Source of the DNA: Helicobacteraceae bacterium
Lineage (GTDB): Bacteria; Campylobacterota; Campylobacteria; Campylobacterales; Sulfurimonadaceae
DNA: 55,786 bases
NCBI GenBank assembly: GCA_947498025.1
Contig: CANMJR010000018.1
Location: 1 to 55,786 of the forward strand
Reading direction: 5' to 3'
Under the pieces are notes generated by a model that searched no databases, was not told the DNA's origin, and saw nothing but the letters and a program-made list of their open reading frames with translations. Below are positions 1,054-55,786 of the stretch, one piece after another. The translations under genes and the position numbers were made by a program. Within the stretch, counting starts at the first letter, position 1. Each line of letters starts with the position of its first letter.

Positions 1054-1080
1054 TTTATTTTCTCATTTGGTTTATTTTTT

Positions 1081-1130
1081 GATATTACGCATCCCCCTAA
1101 AGCTACGAAAAATAAATTTTTCGAGAATTA
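1081..1130 (-). repeat. Dispersed hairpin element, copy A (shortest form)
   Basis: The plus strand reads GATATTACGCATCCCCCTAA, then AGCTACGAAAAATAAATTTT, then TCGAGAAT. This equals the terminus GATnTTACGCA joined directly to the CCCCCTAAAGCTACGAAA...TTTCGAGAAT block seen in copies B-E. The two middle hairpins (AGGGACA...TGTCCCT and ACTAAAACG...CGTTTTAGT) are missing, so it is an internally deleted copy. It lies about 28 bases upstream of the barrel-protein gene. Confidence 0.6.
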
Positions 1131-1294
1131 AAGGGCTAGTTTTTTTAAGAGTCTAAAGAAATTTTTAATTGCTGTTTAGGAGAATAAATAGCCAATCGTT
1201 TTTTTTATATATAAGTGTCCATAAGTACACTCTTCATTTATATATAATTGTTTTTGTACAATGCCTGAGGCATCTTCATATGTACATTTTGCTT

Positions 1295-4904: not shown

Positions 4905-4938
4905 ATTCCTTTCCTCTGAATGTTTATGTATAGTAACT

Positions 4939-5075
4939 GACCTTATACACTTTTTAAAAAAGCGTATAAGACTCTTTAAAATTCTCGAAAAACAGAGTTT
5001 TTCGTAGCTTTAGGGGGTTGTAGGGACATCTGTCCCTGCCACTAAAACGGACGTGTTCGTTTTAGTGTGTAACAC
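4939..5075 (+). repeat. Dispersed hairpin element, copy B (short form)
   Basis: The element runs from GACCTTATACAC to GTGTGTAACAC. Its terminal 8-mers TTATACAC (4943-4950) and GTGTGTAA (5065-5072) are inverted with one mismatch. Inside are three hairpins: TCGAAAAAC..GTTTTTCG, AGGGACA-TC-TGTCCCT, and ACTAAAACG..CGTTTTAGT. The right end abuts the nuoN stop codon (5077-5079), so for the nuo transcript this element is the first sequence after the operon and could act as its terminator. Confidence 0.7.
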
Positions 5076-5076
5076 A

Positions 5077-6585
5077 TTAGTACCCACTGTTATATACAAA
5101 AGCTGTAATTAACTCTAAAAGCGGGTTTAGTGCAACAAAAGCAAATATAGTTCCTATTGCTGCAAATCCGATGATAGATTTGAGTGCAATTGTTGCATTT
5201 GAAACATAAACATGTCCATCATTCCCCATTACAGGCTCTTTCATAAACATATAAACTATTAGTTTTAGGTAGTAGTATCCGGCAATTGCTGAGTTGAGTG
5301 CCATAATAAAGGCCAAAATTGTGTAACCGCCTGTAACAGCCGATGAAATCAAATAGAGTTTACCCCAAAAGAGCGCAAACGGCGGAACCCCTGCCAAGCT
5401 AAGCATGAACAGACCCATGATAGAAGCTGCAACCGGTGATGTTTGAACCATGCCTGCAAATTTATCGTAAGAGTGGTCTGACATTTGGTGTAGTGGAAGG
5501 TGTTTTTGACGAGAAATCCAAAGCATACTGAATGAACCAAGATTTGTAAAACTAAAAAGTATCCAGTATAAAAAGAGGGCACTATTTGACTGCGTTGTGC
5601 CGATTAGAATAGCTGCCATTACAAAGCCTGCATGTGAAACTGAGCTGTACGCTAGCATTCTCTTAACATCTGTTTGAACTAATGCCCAGATATTTGCAGC
5701 CGTCATTGTTAGAATAACAAAGGAGTAGAGTACAATCTCCAGCCATACAACACCGCTGTGAATTAAGAATTCAAAGAGTCTCATCGCAACCACAAAAGCT
5801 GCAATTTTTGGCACAATAGACATAAATCCTGCCATTGAAGCACTTGCACCCTCATAGACATCCGGTGCCCATGTGTGAAACGGAACGAGAGAGAGTTTAA
5901 ATCCAAATGATGCTAGCATAAATACTACACCGACTAAAACATAGGCAATATCAACATACTTATTTGCTGCCAATACCGCAGCTATCTGGCTGATTTCAAC
6001 TGATCCCGTAAGTGCATAAAATATCATGGCTCCAAAGCTGAAAAAGCCGGCTGCTAAAGCACCCATAGTAAAATATTTAACCGCAGCTTCAAATGATTTG
6101 TCACGGTTGTGCATAGCTACGAGTGTGTAAAGCGCTAAAGAGGAAGTCTCAAGCCCGACAAACACAAGAATTAAGTTATCTGTTGCAACCATAAACTGGA
6201 AGCCTGCAATCATAAATAAAAAGAGTGCAAAGAACTCCGGATAGGAAAACTCATGGAATCTTTTATGCGTTAATGCAAGCGGTATGAAAAGCATTGAAGC
6301 CCCAACAATGATAAATTGAGACAAAATAGCTAAACCGTCTATGAGCATAACATTAAACACGCCCATCATTATGCCGTCTTGGGTGAAAACACCTGCTGAG
6401 CCTAGCAAAGCACTAAAATCCATCAATAAGAAAAGAAGACTTATAGAAACATAGAGAGTTTTATCTAAGCCCACTTTGAAAATATCAATAACTAGAATTA
6501 AGAGTGCTCCAACTATCGGAATCAACATAGGTGCTAGCGTCATTAAGTTTAATGACGCTAAAGAAACATTTACCGGCTCTATCAT
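5077..6585 (-). CDS. nuoN: Complex I antiporter-like subunit NuoN
   Basis: NuoN (502 residues) is one of three Mrp-antiporter-like proton-pumping subunits in the membrane arm of complex I. The protein is almost entirely transmembrane helices and has the family signature LVPFHTWAPDVYEGASASMA near residues 230-250, with the conserved Lys and Glu positions of the channel (for example FVGLETSSLALY near residue 145). It is the last gene of the nuo operon, and its start overlaps the nuoM stop by one base. Directly downstream lies hairpin element copy B, which touches the stop codon. Confidence 0.96.
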   Translation of the reverse strand: MIEPVNVSLASLNLMTLAPMLIPIVGALLILVIDIFKVGLDKTLYVSISLLFLLMDFSALLGSAGVFTQDGIMMGVFNVMLIDGLAILSQFIIVGASMLFIPLALTHKRFHEFSYPEFFALFLFMIAGFQFMVATDNLILVFVGLETSSLALYTLVAMHNRDKSFEAAVKYFTMGALAAGFFSFGAMIFYALTGSVEISQIAAVLAANKYVDIAYVLVGVVFMLASFGFKLSLVPFHTWAPDVYEGASASMAGFMSIVPKIAAFVVAMRLFEFLIHSGVVWLEIVLYSFVILTMTAANIWALVQTDVKRMLAYSSVSHAGFVMAAILIGTTQSNSALFLYWILFSFTNLGSFSMLWISRQKHLPLHQMSDHSYDKFAGMVQTSPVAASIMGLFMLSLAGVPPFALFWGKLYLISSAVTGGYTILAFIMALNSAIAGYYYLKLIVYMFMKEPVMGNDGHVYVSNATIALKSIIGFAAIGTIFAFVALNPLLELITAFVYNSGY

Positions 6586-28452: not shown

Positions 28453-28610
28453 ATTTTCAAGCAAATTGTATATCCTTAGAAGAGATAAGTAAGTAAAATA
28501 ATTCGCAATTATACTCACTAAAACCTATATAAAACTTATGATATTTATTTGAATAAGAAAAGTAATAATCCTCCTCAAAGCAAAAAAAGTGGAACTCATT
28601 TTGCTTAATA

Positions 28611-28753
28611 CCTTAAATACAATGCACTTCTTCATAAAGTCTGTAATACTCCATTAAAATCTCGAAAAACAAAGTTTTTCGTAGCTTTAGGGGGTTGTAG
28701 GGACATCTGTCCCTGCCACTAAAACGGACGCGTTCGTTTTAGTGTGTAACATC
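28611..28753 (+). repeat. Dispersed hairpin element, copy C (short form)
   Basis: The core from TCTCGAAAAACAAAG (about 28660) to GTGTGTAACATC is nearly identical to copy B. It has the hairpins CGAAAAAC..GTTTTTCG, AGGGACA-TC-TGTCCCT and ACTAAAACGgacgcgttCGTTTTAGT. The left boundary is uncertain (CCTTA at 28611 is the best match to the element's GACCTTA end). The right end lies 17 bases before the start codon of the J-domain gene, within the likely 5' leader. Confidence 0.6.
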
Positions 28754-28770
28754 AAAAAAAGGTAGGAGAT

Positions 28771-38329: not shown

Positions 38330-40066
38330 TTGAAAATATTAGTTGATTTTTTATCGCAAAAGAAGATTGAAGAGTCTGAAATATTTGCGCATCTTAAGTG
38401 TAGTCATGACGAGGCTCTGATGCTTCAGAATTTGACTAAAAAATATGTTGAGGGTCAGGATGATATTTTGATTCTGGAACTTTTGCAAGATTTGTATCCG
38501 ACGGAAAAATATAAGCATTTGAGCCATCTAAAAGAGTTGAAAAATCTCTTGGAACTCGGTTGGCTGCATCAGCAGAGTTTTACTCCCATGAAGATGTCGG
38601 AGGTTACTCCGCTGGAGCTTTTAAATACCGCGATAGGACTTACTCCGTCGTTTTTAAAACTTCTTCAAGACGGAACCTTAGAGAGTGAACTACCAGATAT
38701 TAAGCCCTACGGCGATCATTTGGAGTATCTGCAAGACCAGTTTTTTAGAATTGAGCTGTACCAAAAAATGAGTGTGATTCGTCAAAATACGCATGAACAC
38801 TCTCTTGGAATTGATAGAATTCAAAATAAACTCAAACTTCTAGAAAAACGCATTGAAGACCGTATTAAACAAACTTCAGAGAGTTTGGTTTTGGACAAAT
38901 TTTTTAAACAGAAGAAGATGACAAATTACGAGCAGGTGCTGTTTATAGCTCTTCTTCGTGAGGAGTACAGCTCAACCGATTCTTCCCTCCGAGAGATGAA
39001 TACCCTGATAGATTTAATCTCTTTTGATGAGTATGAACGCATAAAAAACCGCTCACTATTGGAAGACGGCTCAAACCTTATTAGTTCCGGAATTATTGAT
39101 TATGAGGAGATGTTAAACCCTTTTGGCGGAATATCAAGAGCATTTTACATAGTGGATGAGGTGCTTCAGAGCATAATACATCCGCAAAAAAATAAAAAAG
39201 TCCGCCGTTTAAAGCTCAATGCAATTATGGATGAGCAGGATATTTTTGAGCTTATAGAGCCTGAGACTTCGCTCTCTGATGTAGTTTTAAACAAAAAAAC
39301 AGAAGAGACTCTGCAAAACCTGATGAGACAAGTGGACAAAGAGGTTATAAACCGCCTTGTTGAGTGGGGCGTAAAAGACAAAAAAAGCGGAATTGACGCA
39401 AGGATTATCTTTTACGGAGCCGCCGGAACAGGAAAAACCATGACGGCTTATTCGCTGGCAAAGTCTCTAAAAAGACAGGTTTTAGCCTTTGATTGTTCAA
39501 AAATTCTCTCCATGTATGTGGGCGAGAGCGAAAAAAATGTAAGAAAAATCTTCGATACATTTTACGATTTATGCGAAAAAACAAAATCAGAGCCGATACT
39601 GCTCTTAAATGAAGCAGACCAGTTCTTAAGTTCCCGTTCTAGCGGCATAAGTTCAAGTGCCGACCAGATGCACAATCAGATGCAAAATATTTTTTTAGAG
39701 CAGATTGAGAAGTTTAAAGGGATGCTTATCGCTACGACAAATCTGCTTGAAAACATAGACAAAGCCTTCTCAAGAAGATTTAACTACAAGATAGAGTTTA
39801 AGAAGCCGGATGAAGCACAAAGGGCGGAGCTATGGAGAAAAATGCTGCCGATTGACGCTCCGTACGAAAAAGATTTTGACGGGGCACCTTTATCGAAATA
39901 CTCTCTCACCGGCGGGCAGATAAATCTTATCATAAAAAACACAGCTTATAAAGTGGCTGTGAGAAAAAAGCCTATTTTCACACTTGCCGATTTCGTAGAA
40001 GAGATTAACAGAGAAAAAGATGCAAATTTCGACAGCGAAAAATCGATGGGATTTTTGAACCACTGA
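38330..40066 (+). CDS. AAA+ ATPase
   Basis: The 578-residue protein has a C-terminal AAA+ domain (residues about 340-520): Walker A GAAGTGKTMTAYSLAKSL, then LSMYVGESEKNVRKIF, Walker B-like LLLNEADQFLSSRSSG (Asn-Glu-Ala-Asp rather than the usual Asp-Glu-Ala-Asp), sensor 1 GMLIATTNLLENIDKAFSRR and sensor 2. The first 330 residues are helical and unrecognised and may be a substrate-binding part. The replaced first acidic residue in Walker B may weaken ATP hydrolysis. The start is TTG at 38330 behind AAGGA. It is linked to the FadL gene by an 8-base gap and ends exactly where hairpin element copy D begins. Confidence 0.82.
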   Translation: MKILVDFLSQKKIEESEIFAHLKCSHDEALMLQNLTKKYVEGQDDILILELLQDLYPTEKYKHLSHLKELKNLLELGWLHQQSFTPMKMSEVTPLELLNTAIGLTPSFLKLLQDGTLESELPDIKPYGDHLEYLQDQFFRIELYQKMSVIRQNTHEHSLGIDRIQNKLKLLEKRIEDRIKQTSESLVLDKFFKQKKMTNYEQVLFIALLREEYSSTDSSLREMNTLIDLISFDEYERIKNRSLLEDGSNLISSGIIDYEEMLNPFGGISRAFYIVDEVLQSIIHPQKNKKVRRLKLNAIMDEQDIFELIEPETSLSDVVLNKKTEETLQNLMRQVDKEVINRLVEWGVKDKKSGIDARIIFYGAAGTGKTMTAYSLAKSLKRQVLAFDCSKILSMYVGESEKNVRKIFDTFYDLCEKTKSEPILLLNEADQFLSSRSSGISSSADQMHNQMQNIFLEQIEKFKGMLIATTNLLENIDKAFSRRFNYKIEFKKPDEAQRAELWRKMLPIDAPYEKDFDGAPLSKYSLTGGQINLIIKNTAYKVAVRKKPIFTLADFVEEINREKDANFDSEKSMGFLNH

Positions 40067-40247
40067 TGTTACGCACCTAAACGAACGCGTCCGTTTAGGT
40101 GGCAGGGACAAATTGTCCCTTGCATCCCCCTAAAGCTACAAAACAAGAGAATCGTTTTTCGCATAGCGAAAATGTTTCTTTAGAAAAAACTTTGTTTTTC
40201 GAGAATAATAAGGTTTTTGTGCACTTTTTCGTTTAAGTGCGTAACGT
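40065..40247 (-). repeat. Dispersed hairpin element, copy D (long form)
   Basis: On the plus strand it runs from GATGTTACGCAC, which overlaps the TGA stop of the AAA+ gene, to GTGCGTAACGT. The GTTACGCAC and GTGCGTAAC termini are perfect inverted repeats. It contains ACCTAAACG..CGTTTAGGT, AGGGACAAATTGTCCCT, and the long-form block with TTTTCGC-tat-GCGAAAA. The first stem has two base pairs changed on both arms relative to copies B, C and E. It lies between the AAA+ gene and glnA. Confidence 0.7.
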
Positions 40248-40330
40248 ATTAGTGTATAACTTAACGAAACATTATGGCAAGATGATTATTTTTTAGGCAT
40301 CATTAATTATTTTATTGAAAAAAAATCAGA

Positions 40331-46859: not shown

Positions 46860-46922
46860 ACGCTTCCCACAATCTTCAATTATTATTTAAAGATTAGCAA
46901 AAACTATTCCTAGTTGTTAACC

Positions 46923-47106
46923 GACCTTACGCATTTTTACAAAAAAAAGCACAAAATACTCCGTAATTCTCGAAAAACAAGTTTTACTAAAGAAACATTT
47001 TCACTTTGCGAAAAGCGCTCCGCTTGTTTTCGTAGCTTTAGGGGGTTGGAAGGGACGGTGAGTCCCGCCCACTAAAACGGACTTGTTCGTTTTAGTGCGT
47101 AACATC
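46923..47106 (+). repeat. Dispersed hairpin element, copy E (long form)
   Basis: The element runs from GACCTTACGCA to GTGCGTAACATC. It has the long-form block with TTTTCACTTTGCGAAAA (a hairpin with one mismatch), then CGTAGCTTTAGGGGG, GGGAC..GTCCC and ACTAAAACG..CGTTTTAGT. The right end overlaps the stop codon of the MGQ-repeat gene. Confidence 0.75.
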
Positions 47107-47470
47107 AGTTACTAAGCTGATTTCCTTTTTTACTCTTTCTACTAGGTACACACTCTACAAGTTGCTCTTTTGTCGTTGCCTTGTTTACGCATTCCTGTGC
47201 CGTTTTTATTGTTACTGTTCTTTTTTCAAGATTAGTAGTCATCTTAGTTTTCATCTGCTCAAAAGTCATGTTATCTCGCATCGTTTGTCTTTTTCCACTT
47301 TGACCTTGACCCATTTGACCCATTTGACCTTGACCCATTTGACTTTGACCCATTTGACCCATTTGACTTTGACCCATTGGAACCACAGTTGCATTAACAT
47401 CAGCTGCCTGAGCAAACGCAGCCGTCATAACAGTTGTAACCAATGCCATAGTAATTTTTTTCATCTTCAT
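47105..47470 (-). CDS. Secreted MGQ-repeat protein
   Basis: From the ATG at 47470 (AAGGA ribosome binding site, 8 bases away) the product is 121 residues. It begins with a signal peptide (MKMKKITMALVTTVMTAAFA, then QAA). Residues about 32-60 are a low-complexity tract of MGQ/SQMGQ/GQMGQ units encoded by an imperfect tandem repeat. The C-terminal part has two cysteines (TAQECVNKA and LVECVPS). The function is unknown; the tract is likely to vary in length between strains. It ends in hairpin element copy E. Confidence 0.6.
   Translation of the reverse strand: MKMKKITMALVTTVMTAAFAQAADVNATVVPMGQSQMGQMGQSQMGQGQMGQMGQGQSGKRQTMRDNMTFEQMKTKMTTNLEKRTVTIKTAQECVNKATTKEQLVECVPSRKSKKGNQLSN
47290..47380 (-). 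repeat. Tandem repeat tract encoding (S/G)QMGQ
   Basis: On the plus strand, TTTGACCCA, TTTGACCTTGACCCA and TTTGACTTTGACCCA units repeat several times (about 9- and 15-base periods). They encode MGQ, GQMGQ and SQMGQ. The imperfect units keep the frame, so expansion or contraction would change the length of the protein. Confidence 0.65.
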
Positions 47471-55773: not shown

Positions 55774-55786
55774 GTGCGTAACATCA
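55774..55786 (+). repeat. Terminus of a further dispersed hairpin element (copy F)
   Basis: GTGCGTAACATCA equals the right end of copies C and E and the complement of copy D's end. The sequence before it differs from the usual hairpins, so this is either a variant element or one continuing past the window. Confidence 0.5.

What the first reader, a model, noticed from the sequence alone, without database searches (positions are those of the whole stretch)
4939..5075. Family of short inverted-terminus elements with stacked hairpins (MITE- or terminator-like), here in five copies
Copies at 1081-1130, 4939-5075, 28611-28753, 40065-40247 and 46923-47106 share the ends TTACGCAC / GTGCGTAA and the cores CGAAAAAC..GTTTTTCG, CGTAGCTTTAGGGGG, AGGGACA..TGTCCCT and ACTAAAACG..CGTTTTAGT. 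They occur in both orientations and only between genes. They resemble miniature inverted-repeat elements or REP-like elements, yet no transposase with such ends is in the window. I know of no named family that they match.
Basis: partly seen in the sequence, partly recalled or inferred. Interest (0 to 1): 0.7.

Follow-up and report, generated by a model that had tools for sequence, protein, structure and literature searches.

The report
Hairpin-rich mini-transposons in Sulfurimonas relatives
These short folded repeats are mini-transposons, most likely moved by a transposase that related genomes carry; they sit between genes, often directly behind a gene's stop codon, and have a conserved folded middle part whose role is unknown.

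Summary
The five window copies belong to a family with about 110 core-bearing copies in this 2.93-Mb genome (118 core hits against 7 for the control) and matches in 121 of 200 genomes of its taxonomic family. It is a MITE: 14-bp terminal inverted repeats (CTGACC/TG-TTACGCAC), no gene, and a 7-bp target duplication in 35 of 72 two-ended copies (shuffled pairing: mean 3.6, maximum 11). Targets resemble TTANTAA. Empty sites exist. No transposase of the matching kind was found in this genome, but relatives carry one: an IS of about 1.1 kb whose end equals the MITE's left end over 21 bp in some copies, with a YREK-type DDE transposase and mostly 7-8-bp duplications in its kin. By those features it is ISPepr1-like (IS4 family), although NCBIfam names it IS701. 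Of 42 genes pointing at an element's right end, 34 stop within -25 to +20 bp of it. The interior has a conserved core between strongly covarying stems. No published description was found in the library searched. New family of a known kind.

The parts
4937..5078 (+). MITE copy 2 (142-bp form), the copy of the finding
   Evidence: right end decayed (GTGTGTAACACATT), no intact target duplication
4937..4950 (+). left terminal inverted repeat, CTGACCTTATACAC
5065..5078 (+). right terminal inverted repeat (decayed)
4986..5004 (+). stem A, CGAAAAAC-n3-GTTTTTCG
5007..5027 (+). conserved core GCTTTAGGGGGTTGTAGGGAC
5020..5039 (+). middle hairpin GTAGGGAC-n4-GTCCCTGC
5040..5067 (+). stem B, 12-bp covarying hairpin CACTAAAACGGA...TTCGTTTTAGTG
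1080..1139 (-). MITE copy 1, partial: right end joined directly to the core, left part lost (outer limit approximate)
28606..28755 (+). MITE copy 3, decayed left end (left limit approximate)
40063..40250 (-). MITE copy 4, 188-bp long form with extended stem A
40064..40066 (+). TGA stop codon of ORF 38330-40066, supplied by the element's end
46921..47108 (+). MITE copy 5, 188-bp long form
55774..55786 (-). exact copy of the terminal repeat at which the contig (window) ends

Best explanation
The element is a non-autonomous DNA transposon (MITE). A DDE transposase of an IS4-type, ISPepr1-like insertion sequence, carried today by some related genomes and presumably by this lineage in the past, recognises the 14-bp ends CTGA(CC/TG)TTACGCAC, moves the element in trans and inserts it at AT-rich 7-bp sites resembling TTANTAA, which become duplicated. 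Such sites can contain TAA stop codons, and the element's ends themselves offer TGA and TAA, so insertions right behind genes do little harm and are kept. Shown by sequence: ends, copy number, 7-bp duplications, target preference, empty sites, and an IS in relatives with the same ends and mostly the same duplication length. Inferred: that this transposase does the moving, why gene ends are favoured, and that movement in this genome is past or rare (no transposase found here, duplications decayed in most copies).
For: About 111 core copies above control in the genome. Duplication of 7 bp: exact matches of length 4, 5, 6, 7, 8 in 2, 0, 1, 18, 2 of 72 two-ended elements; at least 6/7 in 35 of 72 against a permuted mean of 3.57, maximum 11 in 5000 (24 of 47 in the earlier). 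Target consensus W-W-A-N-T-A-A. Empty sites: the L093 element is absent in this genome at L085, where one TTAGTCA is left, flanks 88% identical over 500 bp; the site of L048 is spanned without insertion by one match in 16 of the 59 other genomes searched. IS in L268: ends CTGACCTTACGCA/TGCGTAAGGTCAG around a 353-aa transposase; its end equals the left end of MITE copies L002 and L007 over 21 bp (E 1.5e-7). Of 14 two-ended IS of this group and its distant kin, 5 have exact 7-bp duplications (L273, L278, L283, L293, L297), 1 has 6 of 7 (L275) and 2 have exact 8-bp ones (L272, L298). Catalytic D-D-E and Y-2-R-3-E-6-K present in the L268 protein.
Against: No match to this transposase in the window's genome; it has 2 DDE_Tnp_1 matches, of which one locus was read and lacks the ends (L250) and the other was not read. 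Only 8 of its 28 two-ended copies still show a duplication of at least 6/7. Of the 14 IS, 6 do not fit 7-8 bp: L296 has 6 bp, L271 5 of 7, and L268, L277, L285, L295 none. Beyond the ends (up to 21-24 bp) four MITE copies compared with five IS share only short matches of 8-12 bases. The MITE is far commoner (121 of 200 genomes) than IS relatives of at least 49% identity over at least 230 aa (7 of 200). No movement was observed.
Confidence: 0.85

Rival explanations
1. REP/REPIN-type element moved by a Y1 (RAYT) transposase, recognised by GTAG and a hairpin.
For: Interspersed intergenic hairpins, GTAG tetranucleotides beside hairpins, and 10 Y1_Tnp matches in the genome.
Against: 7-bp target duplications and 14-bp inverted ends, which Y1 transposition does not make (recalled knowledge). 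In the 8 of 10 Y1 loci examined no copy flanks the gene; a one-mismatch core lies about 1.1 kb away in L015, and single short motif matches occur in some others.
Confidence: 0.04
2. Transcription terminator or mRNA 3'-end element that is kept and multiplied by selection at gene ends rather than by transposition.
For: 34 of 42 genes pointing at the right end stop within -25 to +20 bp of it; more right ends face a gene's 3' end than a 5' end (42 to 19, p 0.004), while left ends show no bias (16 to 14); strong hairpins.
Against: The terminator scan finds no more sites than shuffles (15 against 12.9, and 15 against 14.4); three weak ones lie inside elements (28663-28681, 40156-40172, 47013-47025), none in copies 1 and 2. 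Duplications and empty sites show insertion. A secondary role after insertion remains possible.
Confidence: 0.05
3. MITE moved by another transposase, for example one with CTGATGTTACGATAATC ends (L277, L278, L285), or by cross-mobilisation between several IS.
For: The right end CTGATGTTACGCAC shares its first 11 bp with those ends, and L278 has a 7-bp duplication.
Against: The left end of several copies matches the L268 group over all 14 bp and up to 21 bp.
Confidence: 0.1

Closest known systems
RUP of Streptococcus pneumoniae, a MITE of IS630-Spn1 (PMC2229807: outline, section 4 and the first part of section 5 read)
   Same: 107 bp, 108 intergenic copies, ends matching an IS that probably moves it in trans.
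   Different: RUP inserts at TA and pairs with an IS630 element; here the duplication is 7 bp and the partner is IS4-type; the interior here has several covarying stems around a conserved core.
Correia/NEMIS elements of Neisseria (same source)
   Same: Two length forms (107 and 155 bp there; about 142 and 186-188 bp here), folded; the long form there is almost only intergenic.
   Different: Other ends, other insertion site, other host.
IS4 family, subgroup ISPepr1 (PMC2266710: abstract, outline, passages and summary table seen)
   Same: Partner IS: 5'-CT ends, YREK motif, 7-8 bp duplications, AT-rich targets.
   Different: Partner IS is about 1.1 kb against 1.5-1.6 kb, fits the end consensus only in part, and matches an NCBIfam model named IS701.
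REP/REPIN elements with RAYT transposases (recalled)
   Same: Interspersed intergenic hairpins.
   Different: Here inverted ends and 7-bp duplications; no link to a RAYT gene found.

Membership tests
MITE | Short, no transposase gene | tested here: met
   72 two-ended copies fall in size bins from 115 to 189 bp, too short for a transposase
MITE | Terminal inverted repeats | tested here: met
   CTGA..TTACGCAC / GTGCGTAA..TCAG, 14 bp; many copies have a decayed or missing left end
MITE | Target-site duplication of fixed length | tested here: met
   7 bp; 35 of 72 at 6/7 or better, 37 of 72 not
MITE | High copy number, empty sites in relatives | tested here: met
MITE | Ends match an autonomous element | tested here: met
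   IS of L268 and kin in other genomes of the family; none found in the own genome
MITE | Actually moved by that transposase | not testable with these tools
   needs an assay
Partner IS as IS4/ISPepr1 | YREK motif | tested here: met
   Y273-R276-E280-K287 in L268; all four kept in 6 of 8 aligned proteins
Partner IS as IS4/ISPepr1 | 7-8 bp duplication | tested here: met
   of 14 two-ended copies 5 exact 7 bp, 1 with 6 of 7, 2 exact 8 bp; 6 do not fit, L268 itself among them
Partner IS as IS4/ISPepr1 | Ends YT-AA-YTT---A | tested here: inconclusive
   distant kin CTCAACTTTCGCA fits all 8 fixed positions; the L268 end CTGACCTTACGCA fits 6 of 8 (counted by eye)
Partner IS as IS4/ISPepr1 | Length 1500-1600 bp | tested here: not met
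   about 1.1 kb in L268; the distant kin with CTCAAC ends are about 1.49 kb
Partner IS as IS701 | Family model | tested here: met
   NF049921 333 bits, cut-off 250; 3 kin checked, L273, L276, L278, also pass, L297 does not
Partner IS as IS701 | 4-bp duplication, YREK incomplete | tested here: not met
   mostly 7-8 bp and complete YREK
REP/REPIN | Accompanies a RAYT gene, no duplication | tested here: not met
   8 of 10 Y1 loci examined
Intrinsic terminator | GC stem followed by T-run | tested here: not met
   no match at stem B, only weak matches at stem A and the long-form module in three of five copies
Known Rfam RNA family | Match to a covariance model | tested here: not met
   0 in the window at gathering score, 0 at E up to 1 in ten element loci

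The most novel reading that the evidence does not exclude
The interior is itself a selected folded nucleic acid, not just filler: a 21-nt core kept across several families of the order while the stems around it change completely but stay paired, with G-T pairs seen more often than A-C mismatches on one strand of stem B. It would be an RNA or single-stranded DNA structure read by a host or transposition factor, spread by a MITE to gene 3' ends.
Probability: 0.3. Interest if true: 0.72.

Novelty: new member of a known kind. Interest (0 to 1): 0.5.

Why it matters
It explains a repeat present in about 110 core-bearing copies in one genome and found through much of the Sulfurimonas-Sulfuricurvum group (environmentally important sulfur oxidisers, recalled). 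It links a MITE family to an ISPepr1-like transposase, shows a target preference that coincides with stop codons, and offers a natural set of covarying hairpins in which to ask whether the interior of a MITE is under selection, a question that can be tested directly.

Tried and rejected
Autonomous copy in the own genome: one search listed 100 of 168 terminal-repeat sites (all 50 exact ones); 40 stretches around such sites were read, and no kilobase-sized pair with a duplication appeared in the 219 loci held. The closest facing pair (C8, 1.6 kb apart) proved to be the ends of two separate elements with other genes between.

Y1 transposases: no link. Plasmids, phages, viral contigs: no match. 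Other terminal-repeat types carrying the same core: an unconstrained search found 79 of 194 cores with some repeat-plus-duplication solution against 32 of 194 with shuffled flanks; nearly all of the best-scoring solutions have the CTGA..TTAC ends, and I judged the rest chance, so the core does not seem to be shared with other transposon types.

Truncated left ends first suggested insertion by target-primed copying; rejected because short forms such as L025 and L026 keep ends or 7-bp repeats.

Empty sites: of 77 elements tested, four gave a match across the joined flanks: one clean (L093 to L085), one uninterrupted at 70% identity (L028 to L172), two gapped and unclear. A comparison of L031 with L160 also lacks the element in the relative at 80% identity, but its end is too decayed to place exactly.

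Strand test: in stem B, G-T mismatches exceed A-C (38 to 12 over 74 distinct arm pairs), but relatedness is not corrected, the filter counted G-T as paired, the own genome alone gives 7 to 3 (not significant), and the middle hairpin gives 12 to 11. The orientation bias in tandem contexts (26 to 11, p 0.02) points to transcription of the other strand, so the two hints do not agree.

Full report
What is there. They are members of a large family. In the genome that holds the window (2.93 Mb, 102 contigs) the 14-base core GCTTTAGGGGGTTG occurs 118 times with up to two mismatches, against 7 for the reversed control pattern, and the terminal repeat TGATGTTACGCAC 168 times against 36. A BLAST search scored only 40 of its 137 candidates, so its 42 listed matches are a lower bound.

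Anatomy. In the orientation of the core a full copy reads: left end CTGACCTTACGCAC or CTGATGTTACGCAC; a small hairpin made of the end and a partly inverted copy of it; stem A (CGAAAAAC...GTTTTTCG); the core GTAGCTTTAGGGGGTTGTAGGGAC; a hairpin GGGAC...GTCCC; stem B (CACTAAAACGG...CGTTTTAGTG); right end GTGCGTAACATCAG. Folding one copy as RNA gives a z-score of -7.5, window copy 5 -3.4. A long form of 186-188 bp has about 44 extra bases in stem A; the motif of that module occurs 31 times (one mismatch allowed) against 0 for the control. Many copies have lost part of the left end.

Mobility. Of all held elements with both ends, 72, 35 have flanking 7-mers that match at 6 or 7 positions directly outside the 14-bp ends; random pairing of the same flanks gives a mean of 3.57 and at most 11 in 5000 trials. 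Exact repeats are of length 7 in 18 cases and of length 4, 5, 6 or 8 in 2, 0, 1 and 2. In the own genome 8 of 28 pass, so most copies there are old or altered. The duplicated site is AT-rich with consensus W-W-A-N-T-A-A. One clean empty site was found among 77 elements tested: the element of L093 (a relative) is missing from the matching stretch of this genome (L085), which keeps one TTAGTCA; flanks are 88% identical over 500 bp. Conversely, the site of the own-genome element L048 is spanned without insertion by a single match in 16 of the 59 other genomes searched, at 63-72% identity (counted from its rows). Three sites are shared and filled, at 92, 94 and 90% identity, with the core at the matching position in both (L036/L099, L028/L193, L045/L181). 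The window copy at 4937 and a copy in Sulfurimonas sp. Kmv11 (L180) lie in the same gap between matching genes but in opposite orientation, probably two independent insertions.

The transposase. A search of 200 family genomes with Pfam DDE_Tnp_1 gave 75 genomes with matches. I scanned 50 loci for the ends (30 given with the search, 20 fetched; many listed matches were not read), and one, L268, has CTGACCTTACGCA and TGCGTAAGGTCAG on either side of a 353-aa transposase gene, about 1.1 kb in all. A protein search found kin in 35 of 200 genomes, many of them fragments or distant, and none in the own genome. L272, L273, L274, L281, L282 and L287 have the end CTGACCTTACGCAC, identical to the left end of MITE copies such as L002 and L007; the L268 end itself is identical to these two copies over 21 bp (E 1.5e-7), and beyond the ends no more than short 8-12-base matches are shared in the four MITE and five IS compared. 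Of 14 two-ended IS, including distant kin, duplications are exact over 7 bp in L273, L278, L283 (a 364-bp internally shortened IS), L293 and L297, 6 of 7 in L275, exact over 8 bp in L272 and L298, 6 bp in L296, 5 of 7 in L271, and absent in L268, L277, L285 and L295 (in one search the right limit of L268 was set one base too far, and I count 3 of 7 for it). NCBIfam names the L268 protein IS701 (333 bits, cut-off 250). By De Palmenaer et al. 2008 (PMC2266710; abstract, passages and table seen), almost all IS701 members have 4-bp duplications and lack a complete YREK motif, whereas ISPepr1 of the IS4 family has 7-8 bp, AT-rich targets, 5'-CT ends and a full motif. The L268 protein has the full motif. 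I therefore call it ISPepr1-like; its length does not fit that subgroup. Another paper reports 4-9 bp for two IS701 members (PMC8024623, passages seen), so duplication length is not a strict divider.

Where it sits. Of 65 own-genome elements with a recognisable core and right end, none is spanned by an ORF of 100 codons or more. Of 42 genes whose 3' end faces the right end of an element, 34 stop between -25 and +20 bp from its boundary; 15 stop exactly at -4 or -17, where the consensus element gives TGA and TAA; on the left side 11 of 16 lie in that range. For genes whose 5' end faces the element the numbers are 6 of 19 and 2 of 14. The simplest reading is a target that resembles stop codons plus loss of harmful insertions. 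Gene ends here are ORF calls, not annotation.

The interior. In a draw of 397 genomes of the phylum, 43 match the element at E <= 1e-5; 12 of them lie in three other families of the same order, several weakly. I fetched 20 stretches; the core was found with up to 5 mismatches in 17, that is in 7 of 8 from the other families (L316 with 5 mismatches) and 10 of 12 from the own family. There, stems A and B often have quite different sequences yet remain paired. For stem B, 83 distinct arm pairs (from 203 cores, those with both anchors) make on average 10.94 of 12 pairs within an element but 8.41 when arms are exchanged between elements (maximum 8.82 in 1000); 9 of 83 pair at 7 or fewer positions, and 10 of 12 positions have five or more double changes. 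This is strong covariation, though related copies are not independent. It shows that pairing was maintained in the lineages that spread; it does not show at what level. No Rfam family matches.

Spread. 121 of 200 genomes of the family match at E <= 0.001, the own genome among them. An exact 24-base core was found in 98 stretches of named genomes, where the scan stopped at its limit; the 80 listed records are all Campylobacterota by title, mostly Sulfurimonas and Sulfuricurvum. No match in viral contigs (exact 21-mer), plasmids or phages.

Literature. Searches for Sulfurimonas or Campylobacterota with miniature inverted-repeat terms, palindromic repeats and MITEs found no description; I saw listings only. 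A REP survey mentions Sulfurimonas once, in a count table (PMC12306157, one passage). The library lacks most subscription papers, and ISfinder was not available.

Verdict. A new MITE family with a probable ISPepr1-like driver; an ordinary kind of element with an unusually well conserved and covarying interior.

Noticed in passing
L059, L060, L082, L088 (own genome): A 40-50 base hairpin module (TCTAAAGA..ACATCGC...ATTCTCTTGTTTT) sits in the loop of stem B and resembles the module that lengthens stem A in the long form, as if copied within the element.
   Followed up: partly
window 55774-55786: The window and its contig end exactly in a copy of the terminal repeat, preceded by another hairpin-like repeat (GAGGCTTTAGCCTC); such repeats may break the assembly.
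   Followed up: no
L077 (own genome, contig C100): An element remnant adjoins a different repeat with CTCGTTCCCACG and CGTGGGAGCGAG arms; the genome also has 10 Y1 transposase matches, so REP-type repeats may coexist.
   Followed up: no
L086, about 950-1000 (own genome): A 50-bp element made only of the two ends and the stem B hairpin, flanked by near-repeats TTAAGAA/TTACGAA; possibly the smallest mobile form.
   Followed up: partly
L283, about 1490-1855 (relative G148): A 364-bp internally shortened IS of the L268 group with an exact 7-bp duplication TTAATAA, a possible step from IS to MITE, in a genome that shares a filled MITE site with this one.
   Followed up: partly
L300 and L306 (relatives G038, G333): Core-bearing units repeated in tandem (92 and 164 bp apart), with stems unlike those of the window family.
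   Followed up: no
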